Assembly: GCA_016795505.1 (NCBI GenBank)
Contig: JAEUHH010000034.1
Span: 1-64,000 of the forward strand
DNA from: Verrucomicrobiales bacterium
GTDB lineage: Bacteria; Verrucomicrobiota; Verrucomicrobiia; Verrucomicrobiales; DEV007
Direction: 5' to 3'
DNA: 64,000 nt
In this document: positions 3,001 to 62,110 of the stretch, piece by piece
How positions within the stretch are numbered: the first letter of the stretch is position 1
Layout: each line of letters opens with the position of its first letter
Program-made: the position numbers and the translations under genes
The notes under the pieces: model-generated
What the model saw: the letters and a program-made list of their open reading frames with translations, nothing else
Database searches by the model: none
What the model was told of the DNA's origin: nothing

Positions 3001-4161
3001 AACGGCCAAAATGTCTCCGCCAGATGACAGGGCGACCGAAAGTCCTGCAAAATCTCCCGTTGCTTCCCCGTCAATGTCGGTTCCGCGCCGCACCCAATTC
3101 GTACCATTCCAGACGTAAACGCGGACATGCCCGGCGTTCGTCCCGTTCCCATCATTTTGAGGTGCCCCAATGGCAAGGATGGTTCCGTCCGACGAAAGAT
3201 CTAGAGAGCTAGCTGAAACATCGCTCAATGCTTCGCCATCGATGTCAGAGCCCCGCTGCACCCAGGTCGTTCCATTCCACTGGTAGACTCGCACGTGCCC
3301 TGCAGCAGACCCGTTCCCATTATTGAGCGGCGCACCAATAGCCACCGTATTTCCATCGGCAGACATTGCGATCGACACCCCCGACTGATCCCCCGCCGCC
3401 TCCCCATCGATATCCCCTCCCTTCTGGCTCCAATCCGGATCGAGATACGCATCCCCCATGATCGACCCCGGTGTTGCCCCGAGTGCTTGAAAGTCGCCGG
3501 GCAGCCGGCGGAGCCCGGTGGTCAGCGTCCCGCCCATCACATCGACGCGGGAACCGCTCAAGTCTCCCAAACCCAGCACATGCCCCTGCTCATGGAGCAA
3601 CGTCGACAACAGATCGTAGGCTCCCACCGCCCCACCACCCGCCAGCGCCATGCCTGAGGCGGCGAATTCCTCATCCACCAGCGGCGTCGCATCCACGAAC
3701 CACGCACCACTGCCCGCCGCGTCATCGTCGATGGTGATGGTGTAACCATTGGCCTTGCCCAAGTGATTCCCCCCCAGATCCGCGATCTCGTACCGCACCG
3801 CATCCAGCGCCGCCACCTGCTCCGCGCTCAGGCCCGACTCGATCCAGCGCTGCCTGGCCGCTGCGGCGATGGCTTCCAGCGTTGCCGCATTCAGCGAGCC
3901 CGAGGCCGCGCCCGTCTCGACCAGCGCCACTGGCGTCGTGCCCGAGACCGTCGGGGCGTCCTCCTGATCAGACCCGGTTGCCTCGCCGATCAGACCCGGT
4001 TGCTCCGGAGAGGTCGCCGTTTCCGCCGGGGGTTGGGGGGCTTCCGGCGCCTCGACTGGAGCCCCGGAGAACAGGATCCGGGGCTCCAGCGCCTCGATTT
4101 GGGTTTCTGAGAGAGAGCGCGGTGTCCGGGAGGCGGCGGATGGTCGGGTCTGGCGTTTCAT
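1..4161 (-). CDS. LEPR-XLL giant surface protein, N-terminal 1387 residues (partial)
   Basis: The frame is open from the ATG at 4161 to position 1, so only the N-terminal part is present. Residues 23-32 read ALEPRILFSG, the LEPR-XLL signature found near the N terminus of very large PVC surface proteins. A metzincin-like zinc motif, HEQGHVLGLGD, lies at residues 190-200 (H190, E191, H194, D200), after a matrixin-like segment containing DDDAAGSGAWFVD. Residues about 242-634 are seven FG-GAP-like repeats of exactly 56 residues (DIDGEA...DGN..A.GA...G.GHVRV..WNG). The rest is Gly/Ser/Thr-rich beta-repeat sequence (for example VTGTGG and VTVDLSGG) typical of adhesins and autotransporter-like proteins. 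It is probably exported and cell-surface bound. There is no obvious Shine-Dalgarno. An 81-bp gap separates it from the LuxR-type gene on the same strand. Protease activity is inferred from the motif only. Confidence 0.85.
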   Translation of the reverse strand, partial: MKRQTRPSAASRTPRSLSETQIEALEPRILFSGAPVEAPEAPQPPAETATSPEQPGLIGEATGSDQEDAPTVSGTTPVALVETGAASGSLNAATLEAIAAAARQRWIESGLSAEQVAALDAVRYEIADLGGNHLGKANGYTITIDDDAAGSGAWFVDATPLVDEEFAASGMALAGGGAVGAYDLLSTLLHEQGHVLGLGDLSGSRVDVMGGTLTTGLRRLPGDFQALGATPGSIMGDAYLDPDWSQKGGDIDGEAAGDQSGVSIAMSADGNTVAIGAPLNNGNGSAAGHVRVYQWNGTTWVQRGSDIDGEALSDVSASSLDLSSDGTILAIGAPQNDGNGTNAGHVRVYVWNGTNWVRRGTDIDGEATGDFAGLSVALSSGGDILAVGAYQNDGNGTDSGHVRVFVWNGTAWSQRGADINGEAGADQFGISVALSDDGNTLAVGASQNDGSGSNAGHVRVFHWNGSGWTQRGTDINGEAANDRSGIAVSLSSDGGILAVGASLNDGGGAESGHIRIFTWNGSAWAQRGSDIDGEASGDRFGISVALSSDGNTVIGGANFNSGGGMNSGHARVYRWNGSVWSQLGSDLNGEAANNLFGRSVAISQSGDAIAVGGNGNQGINGPTSGHVRIFQMGGTGNGPGGIGSTTSVALDPNGNLLITDTDGGDTDDTLTLVVNGASYRITDATNRLSAGAGAVQIDDHTVEVAIASVTGADGIVFDTLGGDDRVTVDLSGGAITHAIDYRAGAGSGDALAFAGTAGTAAFTFSDLQSGDVVINGGPQIAYSGLDQGIDAGLAVASLTLIYGNASETITIADDTAAGWMSVTSSEAQAIRFLNPTQSLQVRGGAGDDTVSAAGFDAAFAGDLLIDGESGEDLVNLDAGYSLATDRSLTVTSESILGSAGAVYVASGTGNIALEATVQIVLVESALTVQDGLLSLSTNQFDYAGPSSPPYVDAGVKLDLATLTVTGSGMADLYGSGVFDNAGVSILNGSQIVGTGDVGIYGESGADAGVYIDGSTIDTSTAGGGHVSIAGQWAGIAGIWVEDASLLAGGNLDLEGMDSSFGIWVGPSSGLDAWGTVTLQGTGYETGVYFSGHVGELGIGSAMNQGVVIEGGSNDTGSSPAWQETAGVTIEGSVSSSGSITVTGTGGKAGISSGYGGMMLDTNSGGFGGDITVTGSGTERGVDLGDDSRLWSGGKLTLEGVGGDVGVDLGMNGFLSATQGDLMITGTATDGVGISAGAGTDLGAMGSAVEIRGEVTATGTGVAFDRVSVNDAVGTSASVTIVGTGGNAAMNRGVEMLGGLIIGSNVWLSGSATGETGLFLEDVEIHSGHGGPADLTLEGEGGHEGVHLGESSYLVSGRDLTIIGTAANGVGVSAGMNTKIGAMGTLVE
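2260..3435 (-). repeat. Seven tandem 168-bp coding repeats (FG-GAP-like)
   Basis: The DI(D/N)GEA codons recur with anchors at plus-strand positions 3406, 3238, 3070, 2902, 2734, 2566 and 2398. Every step is exactly 168 bp (56 codons). Units have diverged at the nucleotide level but keep GHVRV and WNG. This is an in-gene tandem duplication giving beta-propeller-like blades. Confidence 0.9.
3966..4008 (+). repeat. 22-bp-period dispersed repeat, locus A (2 units)
   Basis: Two head-to-tail units, 3966-3987 and 3988-4008, both begin GATCAGACCCGGTTG. They lie in frame in the low-complexity N-terminal linker of the LEPR-XLL gene, where the minus strand encodes PGLIGEATGSDQ. They belong to the same family as loci B to H. 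Confidence 0.85.
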
Positions 4162-4242
4162 GGGTGTTCGGTTCGTGAAAGGGCGTTTGGGTGGGATGGG
4201 CAGGGTGGGTGGTCTCAAAAAAATCGTCAATGGGGTGATACC

Positions 4243-4557
4243 CTAATTCCGCGGCCCCGCTCCCGTCTGCCGGAGCAGCCACTCGTCGTGCAGCAGCGTC
4301 CACACGACCGCGGCATCGATCCGCGAGCCGATCGCCAAGGCGCGCAGGATCTGCGTCATCTCGGCCTCGATCGTCTTCACGCTCACCCGGCAGACCAGCG
4401 CGATCTCGCCGTTGGTGGCCCCGTGGCCGACCCAGGCGAGGATGGCCCATTGCCGTTCGGAGAACGTCCGGGTGCTGTGGCGGATGCCATCGAGGTCGAA
4501 GCGTTCCGTCGGGCGGGGCGGCAGCGGGTAGGGGAATTCAGGCGGGGAGACATTCAT
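4243..4557 (-). CDS. Small LuxR-type HTH protein (104 aa)
   Basis: Nearly the whole protein is one LuxR/GerE-type helix-turn-helix: FSERQWAILAWVGHGATNGE, then a recognition-helix segment VSVKTIEAEMTQILRALAI. There is no receiver or ligand-binding domain, so it is a stand-alone DNA-binding module. An upstream in-frame ATG at 4644 would add 29 residues (GDFLRKKRRPG...) read through an A/T-tract and hairpin, so I prefer the ATG at 4557. It lies 81 bp upstream of the LEPR-XLL gene on the same strand and may control it or be co-transcribed with it. That role is inference from position only. Confidence 0.75.
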   Translation of the reverse strand: MNVSPPEFPYPLPPRPTERFDLDGIRHSTRTFSERQWAILAWVGHGATNGEIALVCRVSVKTIEAEMTQILRALAIGSRIDAAVVWTLLHDEWLLRQTGAGPRN

Positions 4558-4583
4558 GCGTATCCCTTGCTGCACCGTGGCCG

Positions 4584-4624
4584 GCCCCGTGTTACAGCCG
4601 GGGCGCCTTTTTTTTCGAAGAAAA
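4584..4624. promoter_or_regulatory. GC hairpin followed by T-run and A-run
   Basis: The plus strand shows GCCCCG-N9-CGGGGC (4584-4604), then GCC, eight T (4608-4615) and a TTTTC/GAAAA inverted repeat. It resembles an intrinsic terminator on plus, but no plus-strand gene ends here. It lies 27-67 bp upstream of the LuxR-type start on minus and about 100 bp upstream of the kinase on plus. A similar hairpin/T-run/A-run arrangement is at 6926-6960. Confidence 0.4.
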
Positions 4625-4723
4625 TCGCCGGAGCCCCCCGCCACGGAGATTTCATCGTGACGCGGGGCGGCAGATGAGGCATAGGATGAGCCCTAGCACG
4701 CTCCCGCCCGGAGCGCCGAACCG

Positions 4724-6874
4724 ATGCCGGAAACCACCCGCACCTGCCCCACCTGTGGAAAGCCCGTCTCCGCGAGCTTTCCCGAGGGCTTGTGTCCCGC
4801 CTGCCTCCTGTCCGATGCGACGGCGCCCTTTGCGAAAGACCCCGGCCAGCCCCGCGCCGACTCACCGGCCACCTCCCGACCGGCCACGGCGTCCCCGGGA
4901 CCGGCCCCGCGGGTGTCCTCCCGCGTGCCCACGGTGGAGGCTCTCCAGCCGTGGTTCCCCGGCATCGAGATCCTCGAACTGCTCGGTGCCGGCGGCATGG
5001 GCGCCGTTTACAAAGCCCGCCAGCCGCGGCTGAATCGCCTGGTCGCCCTCAAAGTCCTCCTCTGTCCCCCCGAGTGGTATGACAACTTCGTCCTGCGCTT
5101 CGAGATGGAAGCCCAGGTCATGGCCCGGCTCAGCCACCCGCACATCGTCACCATCCACGACTTTGGCGAGATCGACCGCAGCGCCGCCGGGCTCGACACC
5201 CTCTTTTACTTCCTCATGGAGTATGTCGACGGGACCGACCTGAACCACCTCATCCGCTCCGGTGACCTGCCCCCCCAGCGCGGGCTCGCCCTCGTCCCCC
5301 AGATCTGCGATGCCCTCCAGTTTGCCCACGACGAGGGCTTCACCCACCGCGACATTAAGCCCGCCAACCTCCTGGTGGATAAGAAAGGCGTCGTGAAGAT
5401 CGCCGACTTCGGGCTGGCCAAGCTGATCCGCGGCGACGAGACCCTCGCCATGGGCCTGACCGTGACCGGCACCTCCCTGGGTACCCCGCACTACATGGCG
5501 CCCGAGGTGTGGGAGACCCCCGAGACCGTCGACCACCGGGCCGACATCTACTCCCTCGGCGTCGTCCTCTACGAGATGCTAACCGGCGAGCGGCCCGCCG
5601 GCGTGTTCGATCCCCCCTCACGCAAAGTCACCGTCGATCCCCGCGTCGATGCCGTGGTGTTCCGCGCCATGGAGCGCGACCCCGCCCGCCGCTACCAGCA
5701 GGCCCGCGAGATCCGCGATGCCCTGGCCCGGATCGGGGAAAAGCCGACCCCACCCGCACCGCGGTCGCGGCGGGGCATCATCGTCGGCAGTCTCGTCGGT
5801 CTGGCCGGCGCGGCGGCACTTGCCGGGCTGGCGGTTGCCATCTTCCACCCCTTCGGGTGGTGGGATGGCCTCCCCGACCCGATCTCAGTAGGGCTCGACC
5901 AAAAGCCCGCGTCCAGTTCCACCCTGACGGATCGAGTGGAAACTCCACCGTCCACCCCGGCCGCTCCCGCGCCCAGTCCCGTGCGGGCCATCCCCCTGGC
6001 CGCCGACAGCTCACCGCCCGCCTGGCTCACCGACGGACTGGCCACCCTCGGCGGCGACATCGTGTCCCTGGCCGGGTGGAGCAATCCCTTCGGGGCAGAC
6101 GATGCCCCGTCGGAGGAGAGCCTCCTCGCCATCCGGGCCGATGGCACCGTCGCCTGCCTCATCGCGCCGGACAATCCCCTGGCCAGCGCCGGACTGTCCG
6201 ATTGGTGTGCCCAGATCACCGTGGCCCAGTCTGCCGTCGTCACCGCCGCCGGCGTCGCCGTGCTCCGGCGCGACGGGAGCGTGATGACCAGGGGCCTCGC
6301 CTCGTGGGGCACCCCGGCCGGGCCCGCCCTGCGCGGGCCCTACACCCAGCTCGCCGGCGGCCACCAGCACGTCGCCGCCCTGCGCGCCGACGGCACCGTG
6401 CTCGCCTGGGGGGACAACCGCTCCGGCCAGGTCACCCCGCCGCCCGGACTCGCCGACGTGGAGAGCCTGCGGTGCGGCCACCTGTTCACCATCGCCCGGC
6501 ACCGCGACGGCTCCCTGACCACCTGGGGCCTGTCCGGGGCCAAAGAGATCACCCCGCCGCAGCTCGCACCCGGAGACCTGCTCGACTGGGCCGCAGTACG
6601 GAACGGGGTTTACCTGCTCCATCCCCGCGGCGAGATGAGCGCCTTTGGTTGGCGGCCCGGCGGCGACACCTGGCCCCAGATCCGCCCCGGCAGCGATGCC
6701 GTGGCCCTCGCTGCCCAGGGCGACTACCTCGCCGTCCGCACCGCCGACGGCCAGTGGCGCCTGTGGAGCGGGATCGAGCGTGGTTCCCTGCGGCCGTATC
6801 CCGGTGGCCCTATCCTCCGGGGCGCCCGCAGCCTCTGCTGGGTTGGTGGCTGCGTCGTCGCCATCGCCCCCTGA
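4724..6874 (+). CDS. Membrane Ser/Thr protein kinase with N-terminal zinc ribbon and RCC1-like extracytoplasmic domain
   Basis: A 716-residue Hanks-type kinase. Residues 8-27 hold a zinc-ribbon-like CPTCG...CPAC pair. The kinase domain (about 81-340) has GAGGMG at 88-93, catalytic K110, HRD at 208-210, N215, DFG at 228-230 and APE at 259-261, so it should be active. Residues about 351-375 form one membrane helix. The C-terminal half has RCC1/BNR-like repeats (ALRADGTVLAWGDN, HRDGSLTTWG, RGEMSAFGWRPGG), probably outside the cytoplasm as a sensor or binding propeller. Kinases with this ribbon are commonly encoded with ECF sigma factors in Verrucomicrobiota; here the candidate partner is at 12057. 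Upstream GGAGCG may act as a weak ribosome-binding site. Confidence 0.92.
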   Translation: MPETTRTCPTCGKPVSASFPEGLCPACLLSDATAPFAKDPGQPRADSPATSRPATASPGPAPRVSSRVPTVEALQPWFPGIEILELLGAGGMGAVYKARQPRLNRLVALKVLLCPPEWYDNFVLRFEMEAQVMARLSHPHIVTIHDFGEIDRSAAGLDTLFYFLMEYVDGTDLNHLIRSGDLPPQRGLALVPQICDALQFAHDEGFTHRDIKPANLLVDKKGVVKIADFGLAKLIRGDETLAMGLTVTGTSLGTPHYMAPEVWETPETVDHRADIYSLGVVLYEMLTGERPAGVFDPPSRKVTVDPRVDAVVFRAMERDPARRYQQAREIRDALARIGEKPTPPAPRSRRGIIVGSLVGLAGAAALAGLAVAIFHPFGWWDGLPDPISVGLDQKPASSSTLTDRVETPPSTPAAPAPSPVRAIPLAADSSPPAWLTDGLATLGGDIVSLAGWSNPFGADDAPSEESLLAIRADGTVACLIAPDNPLASAGLSDWCAQITVAQSAVVTAAGVAVLRRDGSVMTRGLASWGTPAGPALRGPYTQLAGGHQHVAALRADGTVLAWGDNRSGQVTPPPGLADVESLRCGHLFTIARHRDGSLTTWGLSGAKEITPPQLAPGDLLDWAAVRNGVYLLHPRGEMSAFGWRPGGDTWPQIRPGSDAVALAAQGDYLAVRTADGQWRLWSGIERGSLRPYPGGPILRGARSLCWVGGCVVAIAP

Positions 6875-6925
6875 CCCGGCCGGCGGCCGCCGGTCCCCGA
6901 CATCCCACCCCGGCTGATCGAGCCT

Positions 6926-6960
6926 GCCGGATGCGGCGCGCTTTTTTTTTCCAAAAAAAG
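6926..6960 (+). terminator. Probable terminator after the kinase, with T9/A7 tract
   Basis: GCCG-GATG-CGGC followed by GCGC and a run of T at 6942-6950 resembles a short intrinsic terminator 50 bp after the kinase stop. The T-run is followed by CC and seven A, so T and A tracts also pair with each other. The A-run directly abuts the putative promoter of the next gene. Confidence 0.45.
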
Positions 6961-6961
6961 C

Positions 6962-6991
6962 TTGCCACCACTCCCCAGACTGTGGTGCAAT
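6962..6991 (+). promoter_or_regulatory. Putative promoter of the HU-like gene
   Basis: TTGCCA (6962-6967), 18-bp spacer, TGCAAT (6986-6991), directly after an A7 tract that could act as an UP element. The segment GCTTGCCAC with a following CACTCC is repeated in the promoter region of the 8276 gene. Confidence 0.4.
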
Positions 6992-7016
6992 CGGCCCGAC
7001 CCGCCGGACCCTCTCC

Positions 7017-7916
7017 ATGAAACCGCTCCTCTGGGACGCCATCAATCCCTTCACCGGACTGCCCTTCACCTGGGACGATCCGAATCTCCGGTTCGTGGAT
7101 GGCATCGGCATGTATCTCGAGCCGGGCGACCCCGGCTTCGTTCCCTACGACACCCCGCCGCCGCCGCGGCGCAAGCCTTTCCGCCGCAAACGGAAACTCA
7201 AACCCAACCCAGAACCCAACCCAACGCAGACCATGAGCTCGTTCAAATACAACGTCGCCCCCAATCCCAACGGAGGCTTCACCACCCGGCCCGTCCTCGG
7301 GCCCGTCATCAGCAGCGAGGCCTTCCTCGCCAAAGTCGCCACCGACAGCGGACTCACCCCCGAGCAGGCCGCCGCCGCCTTCGATGCCATCGTCGGCGCC
7401 ATCACCGCCTGCGCCACCGGCTGCGACCACGCCACCGACATCCGCGGCCTGCTGCGCTTCCGCCCCACCAGCGGCGGCACCAGCCCCACGCCCGATGGAT
7501 TCCACAATCCCGACGACATCAATGCCGACATCGCCATCTCCCTCACCGCCGCCGCCCGCGATGCCTGGCGCGCCGGCCTGACCCTGGAGAGCCTCGGCGA
7601 GGTGGGCAAGGTCAGCCCCCTCATCGACTCCATCCTGAGCCAGGAGAATGGCGCCGAGAATCACTACGTGCCCGGCACCCTGATCGTGCTCAATGGCGAC
7701 CTGCTGCGCTTCCAGAAGACCGATCCCACCCAGGGCGTCTTCTTCCGCTCCGGGAACAATGCCGAAGTGCGCGCCACCATCTACGGCACCATCACCCCTA
7801 CCTCCCTTTCCGTGCTGGTCCCGGACACGCTGACCGGGCCGCTCAGCGTCCGGGTCGCCGCCTACATCAACGGTAGCGTGCGGAGCTTCACCTACATGAC
7901 CCCGATCACCAATTGA
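7017..7916 (+). CDS. HU/IHF-like DNA-binding protein with Ig-like (DUF4469-type) C terminus
   Basis: A 299-residue protein in three parts. Residues 1-72 are a Pro/Arg-rich extension (PFTGLPFTWDDPN, LEPGDPGFVPYD, RRKPFRRKRKLK). From M73 a domain resembles the HU-like family found with DUF4469: FLAKVATDSGLTPEQ and AFDAIVGAI, then SPLIDSIL. Residues about 220-299 resemble the DUF4469 Ig-like fold (LNGDLLRFQKTDP, SVLVPDTLTGPLSV). Such proteins are thought to bind DNA, but targets are unknown. A downstream ATG at 7233 gives a 227-residue version lacking the basic extension; neither start has a clear ribosome-binding site. A 12-unit 22-bp tandem array starts 25 bp after the stop codon and is a candidate target by position only. 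Confidence 0.75.
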   Translation: MKPLLWDAINPFTGLPFTWDDPNLRFVDGIGMYLEPGDPGFVPYDTPPPPRRKPFRRKRKLKPNPEPNPTQTMSSFKYNVAPNPNGGFTTRPVLGPVISSEAFLAKVATDSGLTPEQAAAAFDAIVGAITACATGCDHATDIRGLLRFRPTSGGTSPTPDGFHNPDDINADIAISLTAAARDAWRAGLTLESLGEVGKVSPLIDSILSQENGAENHYVPGTLIVLNGDLLRFQKTDPTQGVFFRSGNNAEVRATIYGTITPTSLSVLVPDTLTGPLSVRVAAYINGSVRSFTYMTPITN

Positions 7917-7940
7917 GCCGGTACGTCCCCCCTGGACGGA

Positions 7941-8204: not shown

Positions 8205-8224
8205 ACAGGTGACGCTCAAAACGC

Positions 8225-8253: not shown

Positions 8254-8275
8254 CCGTAGGCCAACACTCATCAGG

Positions 8276-8770: not shown

Positions 8771-8793
8771 TGGAGCCGGCGTGGATCTCCGAT

Positions 8794-8881
8794 GCAACAG
8801 GGTCTGATCAGAGAGGCAACAGGGTCTGATCGGAGAGGGAACAGGGTCTGATCGGAGAGGGAACAGGGTCCGATCGCAGGA
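8794..8881 (-). repeat. 22-bp-period dispersed repeat, locus B (4 units)
   Basis: Four tandem units at 8794, 8816, 8838 and 8860, each 22 bp. On plus they read (G/G)(C/G)AACAGGGT then CTGATCGGAGAG with single-base variants. This is the longest and most regular copy of the family. It is intergenic, starting 23 bp after the 8276-8770 stop. The rest of the gap to 9001 shows only a TTGACA at 8933. Confidence 0.95.
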
Positions 8882-14581: not shown

Positions 14582-14739
14582 GCGGGTGAGGTGGGGATGG
14601 GTCGGGGCTGGGGAAAGTCGTCTGCTCGTGTTTGTCGCCTGTCGGGCCGGAGTGACGGGGACGCAAAGCGTAGCACCGATGTCGGTCGGTGAAAACTCGT
14701 GGCTCGGGAGGAGGGAAGGGGGGCTGGGGTGTCTCCGAT

Positions 14740-14778
14740 GGAACAGGGTCTGATCGGAGAGGCAACCCTGTATGATCG
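14740..14778 (-). repeat. 22-bp-period dispersed repeat, locus C
   Basis: A full unit GGAACAGGGT + CTGATCGGAGAG at 14740-14761 is followed 22 bp later by a partial unit GCAACCCTGTATGATCG at 14762-14778. It lies in the divergent gap between the thioredoxin-fold gene and the histidine kinase, immediately before the first possible kinase ATG. The preceding CTCCGAT is also found before locus B. Confidence 0.88.
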
Positions 14779-14781
14779 AAA

Positions 14782-29406: not shown

Positions 29407-29420
29407 GGGGCGGTGGCCAC

Positions 29421-29485
29421 GAATCAACAGGGTTCGGTCTCCGAGTCAACAGGGTTCGGTCTCCGAGTCAACCCGGTTGGATCGG
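29421..29485 (-). repeat. 22-bp-period dispersed repeat, locus D (variant, 3 units)
   Basis: Units at 29421, 29443 and 29465 step by exactly 22 bp. The first two read GA(A/G)TCAACAGGGTTC then GGTCTCC on plus. The third reverts towards the main family (GAGTCAACCCGGTTGGATCGG). The CAACAGGGT core is shared with loci B and C while the rest differs, so this is a subfamily. It lies between pyrF (start 29406) and the 29581 promoter. Confidence 0.88.
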
Positions 29486-29517
29486 AAAATGCCCGCGGCA
29501 TCGGCCGGACAGAGGCG

Positions 29518-33737: not shown

Positions 33738-36281
33738 TCACTTCTCGCCGAGCTGCTTTTTCACGGCATCCACGGTCAGGCCGCCGACGGGGAGGTCGTA
33801 GCCGAGGGTGTCTCCGTTCGGCTGGAAGCCGCCGCCATCGACATCGATGAAGATCGGATTGTTGTAGGCGATGGGCTTGAGAGGCGACTGGCCGCTGCTG
33901 CCAAAGCCGGTCTTCAGCGAGAGGCTCTCACCCTGGCCGATGGCGACGACGATGAGGTGGGCATCCTGCTGGAGGCTGAGCTTGAGCGTCTGGTCGAATT
34001 TCACCACGCCATCCTGGAACATCTCGGGATTTTTCTCACGGGTGTAGTTGTACTCGGGCGCCTGGCGACCGTTGACGAGCACCTGGACGCGGTCGATATC
34101 GAGCCAGTCGGTGCACTGGACGCGGACTTTCAAGGCGACTTCTCCGCTGACGCGGTCGAGTCCGCCGGCGTGGATGCCGGCACCGGTAGTGACTTCGAGG
34201 TAGGGGCCGGTGCTGAGGATCATGCGGCCGGCCTTGCTGTTCCGGCTCAGCTCGCGCCAGTCGATCTTTTCCGGTTCGTCGGTGCTGCTCTGCACATAGG
34301 TCCGCCAGCCGCCGACGCCGTTGCCGTGGACGTGATGGGCATCGGAGACGGCGATGGCGCGCGGGCTGAGGCCCTGATTGAGCAACTGGAGCCAGATAAA
34401 CTCCCGGATGGGTGAGACGACGCGGGCGAGACCGCCGCCGCGCGGGGCGGTGAGCCGGTAGGGGGCGTCGGCGAGGATGTCGCTGGTGCTGTAGTTCTGC
34501 GACTCGAGTCCGTCGATGAGTCCGCCGAAATAGGCGAAGCCGCCGTCGGCGCGGCCGTCTTTGTCGCGATCGATGAAGTTTTCGATCATGTCGGGGTGAT
34601 TGACATGGATCCAGCGGTCCGGCTCGGCGCCCTGCCAGTCGCGCAGGGTGATGGCATTGAGGCGCGGGTCTTTTTTCCACACCGGGGCGCCGCCATCCTG
34701 GCGCGAGGGCTCGGGCTGGAGGGGGAAGGAATTGAAGTGGGCGCCGGAGCCGGTGAGTTCCATGCCGGGGATGGTCTTCAGGTAGGGCGTCAAGCCGAGG
34801 CGCTCGATGTGGGGCAGCCAGTCGTAGAGGCGGTTGTGCTCGGTGGTGGGGGCGAACTCGACGTGCTCGGCGGCGAGATTGATGAGCCGGTCGTCGGTGC
34901 CGCAGGTGTTGTCTCCGCTGGGGGTGGAGTGGCTGTGATAGTCGACGGCGACCCAGCCGGGGGTCTGGACGAGGCGTTTCAGGGTGGTTTTGACGGTGTG
35001 GGTCTGGCCGGCGGCGAGGGTGATCTCTTCCCGGTAGTGGCTGTGCTCGGGTCCGCGGGTGACGATGACTTCGTAGCTGCCCGGGGGCAGGGCGACGCGG
35101 AAGGCGCCGGTCTCGGAGAGATACTGGTCGACGCAGCCGCGGGCGCGGTCGGTGGGGCCGAGATTCACTTTGGGGGTGTCGCCGAGGGCATTGAACTGGG
35201 CCTTGCACGGGATGGAGCGGCCCTGATCGTCGGTGATGGCAAAGGCGACGCCGGACTCGGCTCCGAGGGCATAGTCCTTTGCCACGTTCGCGCCGGCGGC
35301 GATCTCGACGCGGTCCTCGATCCAAGTGCGGCCGATGTCCTCCACCGACAGGAGGTAGGTGCCGGCGGGGACGGCGAGGGTGATCTGGCCGGAGTCATCG
35401 GGGTAGGCGGGGACGATGCGGTCGGGTGCGGTGCCGATGACGACGCGGCCATCGGTGATGGCGGCTCCGGATTTTTCGTCTTTCATCGTCACCGTGAGGG
35501 TGCCGGTCGCGGCGGCATTCCGGCGCGTCTCGACGAGCCCGACTGCGGCGGCGGGCGAGGTGGCGACGGCGAGGAAGCGGGCGACGGTGATCGATTCGCC
35601 GGGGGCGAGGGTGTGATCGTTGGCTTTCGGCAGTTCGGCACCGCCTTCGGCGACCCAGGCGTGGGCATAGCCGCAGCGGTCGGCCGGGTCGACGGCGTCG
35701 GCCCAGTTGATCCCGTTGACGACGCCCTTGCTGCGCATCTGGGTGGTGCTGTCGGTGAGGGTGACTTTTTTCGGCTCGGTGCCTTCGTTGGCCAGGGTGG
35801 TGACGATGAGCAGGCCGTCCCAGCCGTCTTTGAGCCGGTATTCATGGCGGCGGGACAGGCCGCCGGCTTTGGCGGCGGAGACGAAGGTCTCGATGACCGC
35901 CTCGCCGTCTTTGCCGTCCTTCACGATGCGGACGTAGTTGACCGCGCCGCGCTGACCGCTGGGGGAAAAGATGGTGATCTGGTCGTTGTTCCGATCCAAC
36001 AGGGTCAGATCGTAGAGGCAACCGGGTGTGATCCCGTCGTCGCCGTAGAAGGTGCTCATGTTGGCGCGGCGCAGGGGCAGGTTGCCGGAAATGACGGCGG
36101 AGACCCGGTCGTTCCGGATCACGAAATCTCCGACGATGGAGTCGGCTTCCTTTCCTCCGGGGCGTTCGGCGGTGAAATTCGACTCGCCCAACTCGAAGGC
36201 TTCGACGGCGCGGGCGTCGGGTGCCGGGAGGGCGGAAAGCGACAGGGCGATGAGCAGCGGGCTCCAGAGGTGGCGGGACAT
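33738..36281 (-). CDS. Exported CehA/McbA-type PHP-domain metallohydrolase
   Basis: From the ATG at 36281 it has 847 residues with a signal peptide (MSRHLWSPLLIALSLSALPA). The N-terminal part is beta-rich (FELGESNFTAERPGG, GCLYDLTLLDRNNDQITIF), followed by carboxypeptidase-regulatory-like beta domains (VPAGTYLLSVEDIG, ALPPGSYEVIVTRG). The PHP domain starts with WVAVDYHSHSTPSGDN and includes FAPTTEHNR, HVNHPDMIENF and SDAHHVHGN, matching the metal-ligand pattern of CehA-like hydrolases. Substrates in this family are phosphate or carbamate esters; the natural one here is unknown. Part of the N-terminal domain (36001-36035) is made of the 22-bp dispersed repeat. It is divergent from the PSD1 gene. 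Confidence 0.87.
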   Translation of the reverse strand: MSRHLWSPLLIALSLSALPAPDARAVEAFELGESNFTAERPGGKEADSIVGDFVIRNDRVSAVISGNLPLRRANMSTFYGDDGITPGCLYDLTLLDRNNDQITIFSPSGQRGAVNYVRIVKDGKDGEAVIETFVSAAKAGGLSRRHEYRLKDGWDGLLIVTTLANEGTEPKKVTLTDSTTQMRSKGVVNGINWADAVDPADRCGYAHAWVAEGGAELPKANDHTLAPGESITVARFLAVATSPAAAVGLVETRRNAAATGTLTVTMKDEKSGAAITDGRVVIGTAPDRIVPAYPDDSGQITLAVPAGTYLLSVEDIGRTWIEDRVEIAAGANVAKDYALGAESGVAFAITDDQGRSIPCKAQFNALGDTPKVNLGPTDRARGCVDQYLSETGAFRVALPPGSYEVIVTRGPEHSHYREEITLAAGQTHTVKTTLKRLVQTPGWVAVDYHSHSTPSGDNTCGTDDRLINLAAEHVEFAPTTEHNRLYDWLPHIERLGLTPYLKTIPGMELTGSGAHFNSFPLQPEPSRQDGGAPVWKKDPRLNAITLRDWQGAEPDRWIHVNHPDMIENFIDRDKDGRADGGFAYFGGLIDGLESQNYSTSDILADAPYRLTAPRGGGLARVVSPIREFIWLQLLNQGLSPRAIAVSDAHHVHGNGVGGWRTYVQSSTDEPEKIDWRELSRNSKAGRMILSTGPYLEVTTGAGIHAGGLDRVSGEVALKVRVQCTDWLDIDRVQVLVNGRQAPEYNYTREKNPEMFQDGVVKFDQTLKLSLQQDAHLIVVAIGQGESLSLKTGFGSSGQSPLKPIAYNNPIFIDVDGGGFQPNGDTLGYDLPVGGLTVDAVKKQLGEK
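35996..36035 (-). repeat. 22-bp-period dispersed repeat, locus E (in CehA-like gene)
   Basis: Units start at 35996 and 36018. On plus they read CCAACAGGGT + CAGATCGTAGAG, then GCAACCGGGTGTGATCCC. They are in frame and encode TPGCLYDLTLLDR on minus. Read on minus they align closely with locus G inside the amidohydrolase. Confidence 0.75.
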
Positions 36282-43838: not shown

Positions 43839-46800
43839 ATGTTGCGTTTTTCGATCATACCCTGTTTGATCGCCGTTCTGACCCTGTTGGATCGGAATGC
43901 GTCAGCGCAGTTGTCTCCCGATCAGGTCGAGTTTTTCGAGAGCCGCATCCGGCCGATCCTCGCGCAGGAATGCTACGAGTGTCACAACTCCCGAGGACAG
44001 AAAAAGGGCGGGCTCATCCTCGATCACCGGGTCGCCTGGCAGCAGGGCGGCGACTCCGGGCCGCTACTGGTGCCGGGGGATCCGGCCGGCAGTCTCCTGA
44101 TGCAGGCCATCCGCCACGAATTGCCCGACCTGAAGATGCCCAAAGCCGGGGCCAAACTCGACGAGGCCATCATCGCCGATTTTGAGAAATGGATCGCAAT
44201 GGGCGCGCCCGATCCCCGCGATGCCCCGCCGAGCAAGGCGCAGTTGGCAGCCGACACGGACTGGGAAGCCATCCGGAAGCGGCGTCAGGGGTGGTGGAGC
44301 TTCCAGCCCATTACCTCGCCACCGGTGCCGGAGGTGGCGGGCACGGTGCATCCCGTCGACCGCTTCATTCGCGCCCGTTTGGCGACCGAGGGCCTGGAGC
44401 CGTCGCCGTCGGCCGATCCGCGGACGCTGGTCAGGCGCCTCCACTTCGTCCTCACCGGACTGCCGCCATCGGTGAAGGAAGTCGCGGCATTCCTGGCGGA
44501 CTGGGAAGCGGACCGTCGTGCCGCCGTTGCCGGTCGGGTGGAAGCGCTGATGGCCTCGCCGGCTTTCGGCGAGCGCTGGGCGCGGCATTGGATGGACTGG
44601 GTCCGCTACGCCGACACCCACGGCAGCGAGGGCGATCCCGAGATTCCCCATGCCTGGCGCTACCGCGATTACCTGATCCGCGCGCTGAATGCCGATGTGC
44701 CCTATGACCAGTTGGTGCGCGAGCATTTTGCCGGCGATCTGCTGGAGCAACCCCGCATCGACCCGACGCTCGGCCTGAACGAAAGTGCGCTCGGAGTGGG
44801 TCATCTGCGCATGGTCTTCCATGGCTTTTCGCCCACCGATGCGCTCGATGAGCGGGTCCGCTTCACCGACGACCAGATCGGTACCGTGACGAAGGCTTTC
44901 CTCGGACTCTCGGTGTCCTGCGCGCGCTGCCATCATCACAAATTTGATGCCATCAGCCAGGATGATTACTTCGCCCTCTATGGCATTTTTACTGCGCCGC
45001 TGCCGGCCACCATCGCGGTGGATGCACCGGGTGTGCTAGAGAAAAATCGGGCCGAACTCGCCGCCCTCAAGCCCGACATTCGCACTGCGCTGGCGGATTA
45101 CTGGCTGCGATCTCTGCCGGCCGATCCGGCCGTGTGGCGGGAGCGGCTCGACCGGGCCGCGGCGGACCAGAAGCATCCTCTCCATCGTCTCGGCCGGCTG
45201 AGTCATGCGGGTGTGGAGGCCTGGCCGCGGGCCCGCGCGGAGCGCGAGAGCCGGCTGGTGGAGGCGCGGCGCCTCGCCGGGGGCGGAGAGACGGTGCGGC
45301 GCTGGCAGATCACGGATCGCAAGGCGTTCTTAGCCGAGTGGGATCGCTACGGGGAGGAGTTGATTGATGGCGAGCCGGCCGCGGCGGGTGATTTCACCCT
45401 ATCAACGGAAGGCGACGGCGTTGTCGATGCCATCCTGCCGGCAGGTGTCTATTCGCATCGTCTTTCGACCCGGCACCGGGCCGTGCTGGCATCCGCCCCA
45501 TTCGAGCTGGATGGCGAATACGATCTTTATGTCCATGTGGCAGGGGAGGGGAGTTCGGTGCGTTACTCCGTTCAGCACTATCCCCGCAGCGGCACCATCT
45601 ATCCGGTGACGAACCTGAGTGGCGGCGAGTGGCGCTGGCAGCGCTACGATGTGGCTTATTGGAAGGGGGATCGTCTCCACTTGGAGCTTGCCACTGCCGG
45701 AGATGCACCCATTCTGGTCAAGGACGAGCCCCGTTCGTGGTTCGGCGTCCGCGAGGTGCGGCTGGTGAAGAAAGGGGCGCCGGCTCCACCCGACCCCGCC
45801 GATTTCTGGCTGGGGCCGATCGAGGGGGCGGCACCGGAAGCGGTGGTCGCGGGCCTGCGCAGGACGATCGAGTCGTGGAAAGGTGGAGCGTCGGCTTCCT
45901 TCGACGACGAGGCGGCGTGGTTTTTACAGGGAGCGTTGGAAGGCGGCTGGCTGCCCAATCAACTGGACACGCTGCCGGACGGAGTCCGTGCCCTGGTCAC
46001 CCGTTACCGAAAGTTGGAAGCCGCCGTCCCGTTGCCGACCCGGGCGCCAGGGATTTTTGAGCGTTCCGGTCGGGATGAGCCACTGATGGTGCGCGGCAAT
46101 CACAAGGAGCTGGGTGATCCCGTTCCACGGCGCTTTCTGGAAGCCATCGACGACACGCCCTATGCGGCGGGTGGCTCAGGTCGGCTGGAGTTCGCCCGTG
46201 ACCTCGTGGCGGAGGACAACCCCTTCACGGCCCGAGTCATCGTCAATCGCGTGTGGCATCACCTTTTCGGCGAGGGGCTGGTGGCGACTCCGGATAACTT
46301 TGGTCGGCTCGGGGAGCAGCCGTCGCACCCTGAATTGCTCGACTATCTCGCCAGCCGCTTCCGCAGTGAACAAGGCTGGTCGCTCAAAAGCCTGATCCGC
46401 GACCTCGTGCTCACTGAGACCTGGCAGCAGGCGGCCGAACCTGCGCCCGCCGCTGCCGAACGCGATCCGGCGAACCGGCTGCTCTCGCATTACGGCATCC
46501 ACCGGCTGGAGGCGGAAGCCATTCGCGATGCCGTGCTCAGTGTCGCGGGACAGCTCGACGGGCAACGCTATGGCCCCCCGGTCGGTGGGGGGACGCCGCG
46601 GCGATCGGTCTACCTGAGGGTGAAGCGCAACGACCTCGACCCGTTGCTCACTACCTTCGATTTTCCGGTGCCCGCCAGCGCCACGGGCCGGCGGGATGTG
46701 ACCAACGTCCCGGCGCAGTCGCTCACCTTGCTGAACGACCCGTTCATCATCGATCAGGCCGGGCGCTGGACATCCCAACTCGGTGGGCAGGATGATGAAG

Positions 46801-52462: not shown

Positions 52463-53896
52463 ATGGCTATCAGACACTCAATTCTCGCGCTCGGGCTGCT
52501 GGCTTTGTTCCTCTGGCCGGGGTGTGGGGGAGCCCAGGATTTCGACCGGGTGATCCGCGGTGGCCGGGTGATGGACCCCGAGACGGGGCTCGATGCCATC
52601 CGTGACATTGGCATCCGCGGCGACACTATCGAGCGCATCAGCGAGTCGCCGCTGACGGGTCGGGAGGTGATCGACGCCAGTGGGCTGGTGGTGGCCCCGG
52701 GGTTCATCGACCTGCACCAGCATACGTGGGACGACGAAAGCTACGCCTTCAAAATCCGCGACGGTGTAACGAGCATCCTGGAACTAGAGGTCGGCACCGA
52801 CGACGTGGCGGCTTGGTATCGGGCGAAAGAGGGCAAGTTGCCGCTGCATCACGGCGTTGCCGTGGGACACATTCCGGTGCGCATGCGGGTGATGGGGGAT
52901 TTTCCCGGCTTTTTGCCGAAATCCGACAGCCGTGCGGCCATGGTGACGGCGGACGATGCCCAGCTCGCCGCGTTGACCGCCGGGATCCAGCGGGGCCTCG
53001 ACGCGGGGGCAGTCGCAGTCGGTTTTGGTATCCGTTACACGCCAGCGGCCACGTCGCAGGAGATCCTCGCGATGTTTCGGCAGGCGGCGGAGAGCCGGGC
53101 CGCCTGTCACGTCCATCTGCGGGAGCGGGCCGCGCGGAGTGTGGGTTCGACTTTGGAATTGATCGGCATGAGTGCGACCAGCGGCGCGGCGCTGCATCTC
53201 GTGCACCTTTCCGCCACGGGTGCGGCGTCGACTCCGGATCTGCTGCGCCTCGTATCAGAGGCTCAGGCGCGGGGGCTCGATGTCACGGCCGAGATGTATC
53301 CGTGGACGGCGGGAATGACCGATATTTCGGCCGCCATGTTCGGGCCGGGCTGGCAGGAGGAGTATGGGATCGGCTACGGCGACCTCCAGTGGGGAGCCAC
53401 CGGGGAACGGCTCACGGAGGAAAGCTTTCGTCGTTACCGGGAGTCGGGCGGCCTCGTCATCATTCACTCCAACACCGAGGCGGTCGTCACGGCGGCGTTG
53501 AAGAGTCCGGCGACCTTTGTCGCCAGCGATGGACTGGCCGGTCATCCGCGGAATGCCGGCACCTGTGCCCGGATCCTCGGCCACTACGTGCGCGATCGGG
53601 GTGAAATCGATCTGATGACCGCCCTATCCAAGCTGTCCCTGTTGCCCGCCCGCCGTCTGGAGGCGCGGGTGCCGGAGATGAAGCGCCGCGGTCGCATCCA
53701 ACCCGGTTGCATCGCCGATCTGACCCTGTTTGATCTCGAATCGGTGGCGGAAAAAGCCACCTTCACCGATCCGAAACAGCCGTCCGAGGGCATCGCCCAC
53801 GTCCTCGTGGCCGGCGTTCCGGTGGTAAGCCAGGGGCGCATCGTGGACGGAGCACTGCCCGGCCGCGCCATTCGCGCGGCGGTGAAAAAGCCGTGA
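52463..53896 (+). CDS. Amidohydrolase (D-aminoacylase/dihydroorotase-like), exported
   Basis: A 477-residue metal-dependent hydrolase with an N-terminal signal (SILALGLLALFLWPGCGGAQ, possible lipobox near PGC). Metal-site motif GFIDLHQHTWDD comes after the strand VIRGGRVMDPETGLDAIRDI; later elements are HVHLRERAARS and LHLVHLSATG. The C-terminal RIQPGCIADLTLFDLESV closes the small beta domain as in dihydroorotase/N-acyl-D-amino-acid deacylases. That closing segment coincides with locus G of the 22-bp repeat. Acyl-D-amino acid or peptide-like substrates are likely but unproven. Confidence 0.88.
   Translation: MAIRHSILALGLLALFLWPGCGGAQDFDRVIRGGRVMDPETGLDAIRDIGIRGDTIERISESPLTGREVIDASGLVVAPGFIDLHQHTWDDESYAFKIRDGVTSILELEVGTDDVAAWYRAKEGKLPLHHGVAVGHIPVRMRVMGDFPGFLPKSDSRAAMVTADDAQLAALTAGIQRGLDAGAVAVGFGIRYTPAATSQEILAMFRQAAESRAACHVHLRERAARSVGSTLELIGMSATSGAALHLVHLSATGAASTPDLLRLVSEAQARGLDVTAEMYPWTAGMTDISAAMFGPGWQEEYGIGYGDLQWGATGERLTEESFRRYRESGGLVIIHSNTEAVVTAALKSPATFVASDGLAGHPRNAGTCARILGHYVRDRGEIDLMTALSKLSLLPARRLEARVPEMKRRGRIQPGCIADLTLFDLESVAEKATFTDPKQPSEGIAHVLVAGVPVVSQGRIVDGALPGRAIRAAVKKP
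53695..53738 (+). repeat. 22-bp-period dispersed repeat, locus G (in amidohydrolase)
   Basis: Units start at 53695 (CATCCAACCCGGTTGCATCG) and 53717 (GATCTGACCCTGTTTGATCTCG). They are in frame and encode QPGCIADLTLFDLE. The protein motif is family-conserved, so the DNA resemblance could partly be chance, but it matches locus E read on minus over most positions. Confidence 0.6.
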
Positions 53897-59410: not shown

Positions 59411-62110
59411 ATGAAATCGATGTCTCGACTGCCCTTCCGCCCGGCCGCCCTGCTTGCGATCATACCCTGTTTGATCGGAGATCATACCCTGTTTGCTCAG
59501 CGAGGCGACCGAGACGGACACGAGATGAAGCCGCCGCCGGCTCATTGGAAGATCCCGGACGCGCCCGTTGTGTCAGCCGACAAGGCTCTGGCGACCTTCG
59601 CGGTGCCGGAGGGGTTCCGGGTGGAACTGGTCGCCGCGGAGCCGATGAACCATGATCCCGTGGCGCTCGCCTTTGATGCGAACGGCCGTATCTGGGTGGT
59701 CGAGATGCGCGGCTACATGCCGGACATCGATGGTCACGGCGAAGACCAACCGACCGGCCGCATCTCGGTGTTGGTGGACGATGACGGCGATGGAAAGGCG
59801 GATCGAAATGCCGTGTTCCTCGATGGATTGGTCATGCCGCGGGCGGTGGCGCTGACTGCCGGTGACCGGGCGATGCTCTTTGCCGACGGGGAATCGCTCT
59901 ATGAGGTAGCGATTGTCGAAGGTCCGGATGGGTTGCCGAAAGCGGGCGAAAAAAGCGTGGTCGATGCCGACTACGCCAAGGGAGGCAATCCCGAGCACAA
60001 GCCCAACGGCTTGCGGCATGCGCTCGACAACTGGATCTACAGCTCCAAGTGTGATCGGCGGTATCGCCGGGTCGGGGGGAAATGGGTGGAGGAGAAAACC
60101 GAGTTCCGCGGGCAGTGGGGCATCGATCAGGATGATTTTGGCCGCCTCTTCACCAATACCAACTCGAACTGTGTCTCGGCCGAGGAAGTGGCCGCCGGTG
60201 TGACGGTGGCCAATCCGAATCACGAGTTCCGCTCCCCGGTGACGGCGAAGATGAAAAATCAGCGGATGTGGCCCGCTCGGATCACCCCGGGGATCAACCG
60301 GGGCTATCTCGAGGGCTTTCTCAATGATCAGGGATTCCTCATTCAGCCGACCGCGGTGTCGGGCCTGGCCGTTTACCGGGGCGACCAGTTTCCGGCTGAG
60401 TTTCGTGGTAATCTGTTCATCAATGAACCGGGTGGCAACCTGGTGAAGCGGGCGATCATCGCGGAAAAAGATGGCCGATTGACGATCGATCAGGCCTACG
60501 ATGGGCGGGAGTTCTTCACCTCCACGGACGAGCGCAGCCGGATCGTGAACAGCTACACGGCTCCCGACGGCACGCTGTATCTGGTCGATTTTTATCGGGG
60601 CATTCTCCAGCACGCGGCCTACATGACCAGTTACCTGAGACAGCAGGTGCAGGAGCGGGGCCTAGACAAGCCGGTGGGCTTGGGCCGCATCTGGCGGGTC
60701 GTGCACGAAGGGCGAGAGCCGGGGCCAACTCCGCGGCTTCGCGAAGCCTCCGTGGCTGAGCTGGTCGGTCATTTGTCCCATCCGAACGGCTGGTGGCGCG
60801 ACACGGCGCAGCGGCTGCTGGTGGAACGGGCCGATGGCGCCGAGGCAGTTGGCGCATTGAAGAAGCTGGTCGCCGATTCCGCAGCCTCTCCACTTGGCCG
60901 CATGCATGCGGTATGGACGTTGGAGGGTTTGGGAGCGCTATCGCCCGTCGATGTGGCTGCAGCATTCGATCCCGCGCAACCGGCGCTCGCGGCCCAGGCG
61001 ATTCACGCGGCAGAGTCTTTGGCTTTGGGAGACAAGGCAGGCGAGGTCGTCTCGGTGGTTTCCGGGTATTTAGAGGCTGGGAAGCCGCTGCCGGTTGTGT
61101 TGAGACGTCAGGTGCTGGCCAGCCTGGGTCGATTTTCCGCCTCGGAAACGGAATCAGTCCGCGATGCTGCTTTTGCCGCGCTGCGGCTGGCTTTGGCCAC
61201 GCCGGCGGACGCCAAGGAGGCCCCATTGGGGCGTGATCTGGCTCTGAGCGGACTGGCGGGCCGGGAATTGGCTTTCCTGAAGAGTGTTGCCGACACGGAT
61301 GCCGGTCGGGAGATCAGCGGTCTGCTGATCGCGGCGGTGGTGAAGTCGAACGATCCGGCGGCGCGGCAGGAGTTGCTCACCCTCGTCAGCAAAGCCAGCG
61401 GTGGGGCGCAAGTCCGCTTGATGGGGGAACTGGCCCGCGTGGCGGTGGCTCAGCGGCAAATGGCGCTGATCGATTCACTGTTTTCCCTCGCTGCTTCGGA
61501 TGCGAAACTCGCGGACTCCCTCGCCGACGGGCTGCTGGCGGGTAGAAAGGCCCTCGGGCAGAAATTCAAGCCGTTGCCGCTCTCGGCCAAGCCGGCCGTG
61601 TTGGCTACTGCCGACGGGCTGCCGGATGAAAAGAAGCGGGATCAGGTCGCGGCGATGTTCGATTTTTCCGGTAAAGCCGCCGACAGCTTCCTGAAAACCG
61701 ACGAGCATCGCCGGCTATTTGAATTGGGCAAACAGCAATATGCGGTCATCTGCGGCGCCTGCCATCAGCCGCATGGGAAAGGGCAGGAATTCATTTCGCC
61801 GCCGCTGGTGGACTCCGAGTGGGTCACTGGGCCGGCCAATCGCCTGATCGCTCTGGCGCTGGACGGTGCGATGGGGCCGATCACGGTCGCGGGCAAGACC
61901 TACACCGTGCCGGAGATCCAGCCGGTGATGCCCGGGCTGCGGCTCAATCCCGAAATCACCGACGAGAAGATGGCCGCGATGCTGACCTACATTCGGAATG
62001 AATGGGGCAATGCCGCACCGCCGATCACCCCGGACATGGTCAAGGCGTGGCGGGACAAGACCGAGGTCCGCGCGCCCTACACCGAAGCGGAACTGAAGAA
62101 GATCAAGTGA
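59411..62110 (+). CDS. PVC-type heme-binding CxxCH protein (membrane-bound dehydrogenase domain)
   Basis: An 899-residue exported protein from the ATG at 59411. A signal peptide carrying the 22-bp repeat (AIIPCLIGDHTLFAQ) precedes an N-terminal six-bladed-propeller-like domain (FAVPEGFRVELVAAEPMNHD, IWVVEMRGYMPDIDGH, YSSKCDRRYRRVGGKWVEEK, ITPGINRGYLEGF). A HEAT-like helical region is at about 490-750. The C-terminal cytochrome c domain has CGACHQPHGKG (C781, C784, H785) and a later Met-containing PVMPGLR. Such proteins are probable periplasmic quinone or cytochrome-linked sugar dehydrogenases. It is divergent from the TlpA-like thioredoxin. Confidence 0.92.
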   Translation: MKSMSRLPFRPAALLAIIPCLIGDHTLFAQRGDRDGHEMKPPPAHWKIPDAPVVSADKALATFAVPEGFRVELVAAEPMNHDPVALAFDANGRIWVVEMRGYMPDIDGHGEDQPTGRISVLVDDDGDGKADRNAVFLDGLVMPRAVALTAGDRAMLFADGESLYEVAIVEGPDGLPKAGEKSVVDADYAKGGNPEHKPNGLRHALDNWIYSSKCDRRYRRVGGKWVEEKTEFRGQWGIDQDDFGRLFTNTNSNCVSAEEVAAGVTVANPNHEFRSPVTAKMKNQRMWPARITPGINRGYLEGFLNDQGFLIQPTAVSGLAVYRGDQFPAEFRGNLFINEPGGNLVKRAIIAEKDGRLTIDQAYDGREFFTSTDERSRIVNSYTAPDGTLYLVDFYRGILQHAAYMTSYLRQQVQERGLDKPVGLGRIWRVVHEGREPGPTPRLREASVAELVGHLSHPNGWWRDTAQRLLVERADGAEAVGALKKLVADSAASPLGRMHAVWTLEGLGALSPVDVAAAFDPAQPALAAQAIHAAESLALGDKAGEVVSVVSGYLEAGKPLPVVLRRQVLASLGRFSASETESVRDAAFAALRLALATPADAKEAPLGRDLALSGLAGRELAFLKSVADTDAGREISGLLIAAVVKSNDPAARQELLTLVSKASGGAQVRLMGELARVAVAQRQMALIDSLFSLAASDAKLADSLADGLLAGRKALGQKFKPLPLSAKPAVLATADGLPDEKKRDQVAAMFDFSGKAADSFLKTDEHRRLFELGKQQYAVICGACHQPHGKGQEFISPPLVDSEWVTGPANRLIALALDGAMGPITVAGKTYTVPEIQPVMPGLRLNPEITDEKMAAMLTYIRNEWGNAAPPITPDMVKAWRDKTEVRAPYTEAELKKIK
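59458..59501 (+). repeat. 22-bp-period dispersed repeat, locus H (in signal peptide)
   Basis: Units start at 59458 (GATCATACCCTGTTTGATCG) and 59480 (GATCATACCCTGTTTGCTCAGC). The first 20 bases of the 59458 unit are identical to locus F. They are in frame, encoding the IIPCLIGDHTLFAQ part of the signal peptide of the PVC cytochrome. Confidence 0.88.

What the first reader, a model, noticed from the sequence alone, without database searches (positions are those of the whole stretch)
3966..59501. Dispersed repeat family with an exact 22-bp period at eight loci, inside and between genes
Related units recur at 3966-4008, 8794-8881, 14740-14778, 29421-29485, 35996-36035, 43853-43895, 53695-53738 and 59458-59501. 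The unit is GATC-N4-ACCC(T/G)GTT followed by about 6-8 further bases, in either orientation. At every locus at least two units, full or partial, are spaced by exactly 22 bp. Three loci are intergenic and five lie inside genes of unrelated function. The period is close to two helical turns and each unit usually carries a near-palindromic TCYGATCRGA. This is not CRISPR (no spacers), not a transposon (no ends) and not a simple microsatellite. About one locus per 8 kb suggests a genome-wide element, possibly a binding array for a nucleoid or segregation protein, or a mobile REP-like unit. I know of no described family with these properties.
Basis: partly seen in the sequence, partly recalled or inferred. 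Interest (0 to 1): 0.85.

Follow-up and report, generated by a model that had tools for sequence, protein, structure and literature searches.

The report
Evenly spaced paired chromosome landmarks
An uncultured Verrucomicrobiales bacterium carries roughly 800 copies of a paired, palindromic DNA site, about one every 8,000 bases and spread far more evenly than chance, which looks like a chromosome-wide set of docking points for a protein nobody has yet identified.

Summary
The unit is TCCGATC-N-RACCCKGTT-N-GATCGGA (two bases, not four, between GATC and ACCC); overlapping neighbours give a 22-bp period: 104 of 105 within-element spacings. In 830 kb sampled from this 6.55-Mb draft genome I find 100 elements; 88 have at least two scored units, and 10 of the 12 singles have a second core 22 bp away. 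Reversed controls give none. 72 are intergenic, 23 in genes, 5 partial, with no dependence on gene orientation. Spacing is far more even than chance: mean 8.0 kb, CV 0.46, against 0.88 for random intergenic placement.
Of nine elements with informative orthologous loci, five are found at the orthologous place in related species (one also in another genus); four are not. In-gene copies sit in N-terminal leaders, linkers or tails, and two differ from orthologues by substitutions, not insertions. Three genera have their own "dialects"; 15 other genera of the family are at background. REP/RAYT, parS/ParB and ArgR are not supported.
Best reading: paired binding sites of an unidentified dimeric protein that organises or segregates the chromosome. 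Main rival: an uptake-type recognition sequence.

The parts
3963..4009 (.). two-unit element (centres 3975, 3997), inside a called gene on - strand (codons ~51-67)
   Evidence: scores 23 and 29
8788..8878 (.). four-unit element (centres 8800, 8822, 8844, 8866), intergenic
   Evidence: scores 38, 30, 32, 24
14734..14780 (.). two-unit element (14746, 14768), intergenic between divergent genes
   Evidence: 40, 30
   Evidence: 8.7, -8.6
29418..29486 (.). three-unit element (29430, 29452, 29474), intergenic beside an OMP decarboxylase gene; present at the orthologous place in G001, G002, G003 and G025
35990..36036 (.). strong unit plus weak second unit (36002, 36024), inside a gene; aligned orthologues show no insertion
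   Evidence: 29, 8
43850..43896 (.). two-unit element (43862, 43884) in codons ~4-20 (N-terminal leader) of a PSD1/PSCyt gene; present at the orthologous place in G001, G002, G003
53692..53738 (.). two-unit element (53704, 53726) in codons ~410-426 of an amidohydrolase gene
   Evidence: 17, 32
59455..59501 (.). two-unit element (59467, 59489) in codons ~12-28 of a DUF7133/cytochrome c gene
   Evidence: 37, 31

Best explanation
Each element is a pair of adjacent near-palindromic binding sites for a sequence-specific, dimeric (probably tetramer-forming) DNA-binding protein; the 22-bp step puts both dyads on about the same face of the helix, so two dimers can bind side by side. About 800 such sites, one per ~8 kb, mark the whole chromosome as a landmark or anchor series, most likely for nucleoid folding or segregation (loop or domain anchoring). 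Selection keeps the sites roughly evenly spaced: they lie mostly between genes, and where they lie in a gene the codons of a tolerant stretch form the site. Site sequence drifts as clade dialects, presumably together with the protein. Shown: anatomy, genome-wide abundance, 22-bp phase, even spacing, intergenic excess, positional conservation, substitution-only differences at two in-gene sites, dialects. Inferred: that a protein binds, that it is dimeric, co-evolution, and the architectural or segregation role. The protein is unidentified.
For: Near-palindromic half-sites without compensatory pairing (z at or below 0 at all 14 symmetric positions; double-weak half-site combination 6 against about 11 expected, my arithmetic from the call's counts), as expected of protein contacts rather than a hairpin. 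104 of 105 spacings = 22 in G000; 45 of 56 = 22 and 9 of 56 = 32 (about three turns) in G013. 100 elements in 830 kb: CV 0.464 against a null mean of 0.877 (minimum 0.631 of 5000); 3 gaps under 3 kb against 26 expected (minimum 15). No dependence on gene orientation (chi-square p 0.49 by count, 0.28 by length), against a promoter or terminator role. 25% of element bases are coding against 88% of the sample. Orthologous positions: 5 of 9 informative elements found in same-genus species, one also in another genus. In-gene sites: N-terminal leader, DNA polymerase III alpha linker, TsaD tail. Clade dialects.
Against: No binding protein found; no experiment. 4 of 9 informative elements are not found in relatives, so positions turn over. 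Three short gaps in the held-out sample (341, 446, 2072 bp). Spacing is less even in G013 (CV 0.59 for stronger elements, 0.68 for all) and the PWM is less specific in G003 (21 of 99 units expected from the reversed control). Density is lower with a loose finder in G057 (10 pairs in 200 kb). Everything listed is also expected of an uptake-type sequence.
Confidence: 0.5

Rival explanations
1. A DNA-uptake (or other gene-transfer) recognition sequence that spreads by molecular drive: DNA bearing the element is preferentially taken up or transferred and recombined, so sites accumulate where tolerated and end up roughly one per transferred fragment.
For: Uptake sequences show even spacing (Karlin, as cited in PMC1939737, passage), are under-represented in coding sequences, above all the strongly constrained ones (PMC7811141, passage), and form dialects (PMC3630211, seen only in the search listing). 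The same three features are seen here. ComEC is present in G000 and in 58 of 74 family genomes.
Against: The known ones as I recall them are short, single, not palindromic and about eight times denser (USS spacing ~1,000 bp, PMC7811141); [quoted passage not shown] A fixed pair of dyads fits a soluble dimeric protein better. ComEC does not separate genomes with and without the element.
Confidence: 0.25
2. Sites for a chromosome-wide replication, repair or cell-division factor (Chi-like, SlmA/Noc-like) rather than an architectural one.
For: Palindromic, chromosome-dispersed sites of such factors exist (SlmA and MatP sites, PMC3116907, passages). Even spacing would suit a coverage function.
Against: Near-palindromic, and forward and reverse counts are equal (358 and 375), against a polar Chi-like signal. 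Known occlusion sites are about 10-fold fewer (SlmA 50). Distribution relative to origin and terminus could not be tested on a draft genome.
Confidence: 0.12
3. A small mobile palindromic repeat (REP/REPIN or MITE-like), with the even spacing due to target immunity.
For: High copy number, intergenic excess, near-palindromic unit, conserved outer ends TTTCCGATC...GATCGGAAA; 17 Y1 transposase matches in G000.
Against: RAYT presence does not track the element: G471 154 pairs and no match (69% complete), G025 206 pairs and one weak match, G006 no pairs and 36 matches. No insertion at the two in-gene sites with aligned site-less orthologues. Positions shared between species and, once, genera. No compensatory pairing. 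No hit of the G000 form in viral contigs. Clean empty intergenic sites were not examined for target duplications.
Confidence: 0.06
4. RNA-level elements (terminators, mRNA hairpins).
For: Units can be written as imperfect hairpins; many lie just after genes.
Against: No compensatory covariation, and no dependence on gene orientation.
Confidence: 0.03

Closest known systems
CdbA sites of Myxococcus xanthus (PMC7156744; passages seen)
   Same: More than 500 sites over the chromosome, likely tetrameric protein on a repeated site, intergenic excess (35% of peaks against under 10% of the genome), little effect on transcription, role in chromosome organisation and segregation.
   Different: CdbA's motif is a degenerate direct repeat separated by 4 bp (8917 sequence matches genome-wide), only 52% of peaks carry it; here the site is a long, nearly invariant pair of near-palindromes with even spacing. 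No CdbA homologue was sought here.
matS/MatP and SlmA sites (PMC3116907; passages seen)
   Same: Palindromic sites scattered on the chromosome; matS was found in silico before its protein.
   Different: 23 and 50 sites, restricted to or excluded from Ter; single dyads, not pairs. Position relative to the terminus could not be tested here.
DNA uptake sequences (PMC1939737, PMC7811141 passages; PMC3630211 listing)
   Same: Even spacing, tolerance-guided placement, clade dialects.
   Different: Here the unit is a pair of near-palindromes of about 49 bp in all, about eight times sparser than USS (~1,000 bp spacing).
REP/BIME/REPIN (PMC3733652 passages)
   Same: Dispersed, intergenic, palindromic, high copy; GTAG REPs are known in Verrucomicrobia (O. 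terrae).
   Different: No correlation with RAYT genes; no insertion at two tested in-gene sites; no compensatory pairing.
Paired ARG boxes of ArgR (recalled; search listing only)
   Same: Two palindromes of ~18-19 bp a few bp apart, on one helix face.
   Different: A handful of operators, not ~800 sites; ArgR absent in 0 of 74 genomes searched having a match.

Membership tests
REP/REPIN with RAYT | Transposase (RAYT, Y1_Tnp) tracks the repeat | tested here: not met
   54 of 74 family genomes match PF01797 with no relation to pair counts
REP/REPIN with RAYT | Hairpin with compensatory changes | tested here: not met
   z at or below 0 at all 14 symmetric positions, 114 units
REP/REPIN with RAYT | Spread by insertion (empty orthologous sites) | tested here: not met
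   Only two in-gene sites could be tested: TsaD tail in G002 and locus 36002 in G001, G003, G025 align without a net insertion; intergenic empty sites not examined
parS of ParB | Is the motif bound by the chromosomal ParB | tested here: not met
   Indirect: canonical parS TGTTNCACGTGNAACA in 51 of 74 genomes, with and without the element (G000 one); usually one strong ParB_N match per genome
ArgR operators | An ArgR protein is encoded | tested here: not met
   PF01316 0 of 74 genomes; 9 of 14 controls ring
DNA uptake sequence | Even spacing, avoidance of constrained coding sequence, dialects | tested here: met
DNA uptake sequence | Competence machinery encoded | tested here: met
   ComEC PF03772 in G000; only this one component was sought
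DNA uptake sequence | Enhances DNA uptake | not testable with these tools
   needs an uptake assay
Architectural/segregation protein site (matS, CdbA type) | Dispersed site bound by a dedicated protein | not testable with these tools
   site dispersed and conserved; protein unknown
Architectural/segregation protein site (matS, CdbA type) | Effect on chromosome conformation | not testable with these tools
   needs contact maps or imaging
CRISPR array | Identical repeats with unique spacers in one locus | tested here: not met
   dispersed elements mostly of two units, adjacent units overlapping

The most novel reading that the evidence does not exclude
A chromosome-wide 'ruler': about 800 paired-dyad anchor sites at ~8-kb intervals, bound by a dedicated, fast-evolving protein that folds the whole chromosome into loops of roughly that size; the sites are kept evenly spaced by selection, are written into protein-coding sequence where needed, and have changed dialect in concert across the genome in sister lineages.
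Probability: 0.35. Interest if true: 0.92.

Novelty: new variant of a known kind. Interest (0 to 1): 0.78.

Why it matters
If bound by an architectural protein, this would give a sequence-defined, nearly regular set of anchors over a whole bacterial chromosome, making the question of what sets the ~10-kb scale of bacterial chromosome domains (a scale I recall from the literature) directly testable: sites can be deleted, moved or respaced. The clade dialects also offer a case of hundreds of sites changing specificity together. If it is instead an uptake-type sequence, it would be a new form of one, paired and palindromic, in a lineage where I know of none described (recalled; not searched for specifically).

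Tried and rejected
Mobile REP-like element: rejected as the main reading. parS/ParB: canonical parS occurs with and without the element. ArgR: absent. Virus-borne element: no hit of two forms of the G000 dialect in IMG/VR (other dialects not tried). RNA hairpin: no compensatory changes. Promoter/terminator: no orientation dependence. A motif-free search for palindromic pairs at 22 bp in the 80 loci was swamped by runs of N and told nothing. ComEC does not discriminate. Paper searches for a prior description found none (one search showed 15 of 28 papers, none on bacteria's repeats by title). Weak points: the position matrix was trained on hits from both strands, so its symmetry is partly built in; the strand-normalised counts show both GATC half-sites after orienting by the core alone. 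Gene calls come from my own simple caller, not a standard one. The G003 matrix is unspecific for single units (reversed control 21 of 99). The named loci L141-L143 are probably the same genomes as G001, G003 and G002 and are not counted as independent.

Full report
WHAT WAS CHECKED. The eight loci are real and each has units or cores 22 bp apart. The window is G000:C79:1-64000 of a 6,547,602-base draft in 120 contigs. ACCCKGTTNNATC occurs 733 times in it (358 forward, 375 reverse), and never in reversed form.

ANATOMY. From 441 kb (C9, C3, and the window contig) I built a position matrix and found 114 units in 53 elements; the reversed sequence gave 0 at the threshold used (12) and 2 at threshold 8. 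The unit is TCCGATC-N-RACCCKGTT-N-GATCGGA, about 25 bp and nearly palindromic; adjacent units overlap by 3 bp, hence 22 bp. Most elements are two units, with outer ends TTTCCGATC and GATCGGAAA. Cores lie in either direction at random (++ 13, -- 9, -+ 13, +- 6 of 41 two-unit elements). There is no compensatory pairing between symmetric positions, so the symmetry is unlikely to serve a hairpin; combinations with both GATC half-sites weakened are under-represented (6, about 11 expected), as for protein contacts with an affinity threshold. This last inference rests on modest numbers.

HELD-OUT TEST. On 389 kb of other contigs the fixed matrix found 91 units in 47 elements, none in the reversed sequence and none in one Markov simulation; all 44 within-element spacings were 22. 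Over both samples 104 of 105 spacings are 22 and one is 53; 88 of 100 elements have at least two scored units, and 10 of the 12 singles have a second core with at most 2 mismatches at exactly 22 bp (background 1.4% per position). By proportion the genome holds about 790 elements.

DISTRIBUTION. The 90 gaps between elements average 8,033 bp with CV 0.464 (range 341-18,877). Random placement in intergenic space gives CV 0.877 (minimum 0.631 in 5,000 trials) and 26 gaps under 3 kb where 3 are seen; uniform placement gives 0.94 (minimum 0.66 in 20,000). The three short gaps (341, 446, 2,072) all come from the held-out sample. 72 elements are intergenic, 23 in genes, 5 partial, though 88% of the sample is called coding. 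Intergenic gene-pair types follow availability (25 --, 22 ++, 16 -+, 12 +- against 126, 129, 101, 44; p 0.49). So the element is not tied to promoters or terminators.

INSIDE GENES. In-gene copies lie in stretches that tolerate change: the N-terminal leader of a PSD1/PSCyt protein ([23 protein letters not shown]), an insert in DNA polymerase III alpha after its OB-fold, the C-terminal tail of TsaD, and in an amidohydrolase at GRIQPGCIADLTLFD. Not all of the 23 were inspected this way: 11 in the first sample were translated, two of them weak single units.

ORTHOLOGUES. Eleven elements were taken to same-genus genomes G001-G003 by DNA similarity; one had no homologous flank (L035:19817) and one gave only weak pairs (36002). 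Of the other nine, five are found in place: 29430 in G001, G002, G003 and also G025 of another genus; 43862 in G001, G002, G003; C9:95090 in G002 and G003, not G001; the polymerase site in G001 and G002 (G003 not covered); the TsaD site in G001 and G003, not G002. Four (L035:1682, L035:7334, L041:1512, L041:7612) were not found in any relative covered. Conversely G001 and G003 have a site near L035:4,900 where G000 has none. The TsaD tail of G002 (AALKHARGAAPTPLDEDI) and that of G000 (AAIKQGLSADPTRLDQDI) have the same length, and locus 36002 aligns to relatives without net insertion: sites can arise or vanish by substitution.

CLADE AND DIALECTS. In all 74 family genomes held, AACNNNGTT-N13-AACNNNGTT is frequent in g1 (4 of 4: 16-95), g11 (2 of 2: 33, 206) and much of g2 (29 of 33 with at least one, up to 154; G052, G021, G470, G472 none), while the 35 genomes of the other 15 genera have 1 hit between them; reversed controls 0-2. 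A related pattern hits 4 of 386 other genomes of the phylum, once each. These patterns would miss very different cores; AACCCTCTT-type cores at 22 bp do occur in some named relatives. Flanks differ by clade: GATC in G000, GACTC/GACC in G001, G003 and g2, GAAC in g11. G013 has 105 units (reversed control 0), spacing 22 in 45 of 56 and 32 in 9 of 56; stronger elements are 6.5 kb apart, CV 0.59 (0.68 for all). G003 has 99 units, but its reversed control gives 21, so singles there are noisy; stronger elements (two units, or score 16 or more) are 6.7 kb apart, CV 0.46. G057 shows 10 pairs in 200 kb with a loose finder. The organism is an uncultured Verrucomicrobiales bacterium, judged from the named nearest loci.

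CANDIDATE PARTNERS. RAYT does not track the element; ArgR is absent; the ParB count does not differ in a telling way and canonical parS is present with and without the element; ComEC is nearly general. The partner remains unknown.

MECHANISM. I favour paired binding by a dimeric protein that anchors or marks the chromosome about every 8 kb (0.5). Steps shown and inferred are separated in Best explanation. The nearest working analogue is CdbA of Myxococcus (passages of PMC7156744). The main rival is an uptake-type sequence (0.25): the literature notes even spacing for those too (PMC1939737, passage), and nothing here excludes it. What speaks for a soluble protein is the pair of dyads at fixed helical phase, which is inference.

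NOVELTY. Dispersed recognition sites are a known kind; a strictly phased pair of near-palindromes at ~800 evenly spread places, in clade dialects, is a variant I did not find in the papers searched (one open-access library).

Noticed in passing
window 7944-8185: A second, unrelated tandem array with the same 22-bp period (GGGGTGCCCCC-AGTGAACCGTT, about 9 copies); its pattern has no exact match in the 290 fetched loci.
   Followed up: partly
window 9001-11982: Large ORF with at least six 165-bp repeats.
   Followed up: no
window 33356-33563: A 30-nt inverted repeat, 90% complementary, arms 148 nt apart.
   Followed up: no
window 56255-56330: 12-bp tandem repeats.
   Followed up: no
G013 contigs (L063, L064, L101-L112): Four-unit elements made of two doublets; nine centre distances of 32 bp, about one helical turn more than 22.
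   Followed up: partly
L150, L153, L165 and others of the 80 named loci: Pairs at 22 bp with an AACCCTCTT-type core, suggesting further dialects.
   Followed up: no
G000 genome-wide: 17 matches to the Y1 transposase family PF01797.
   Followed up: no
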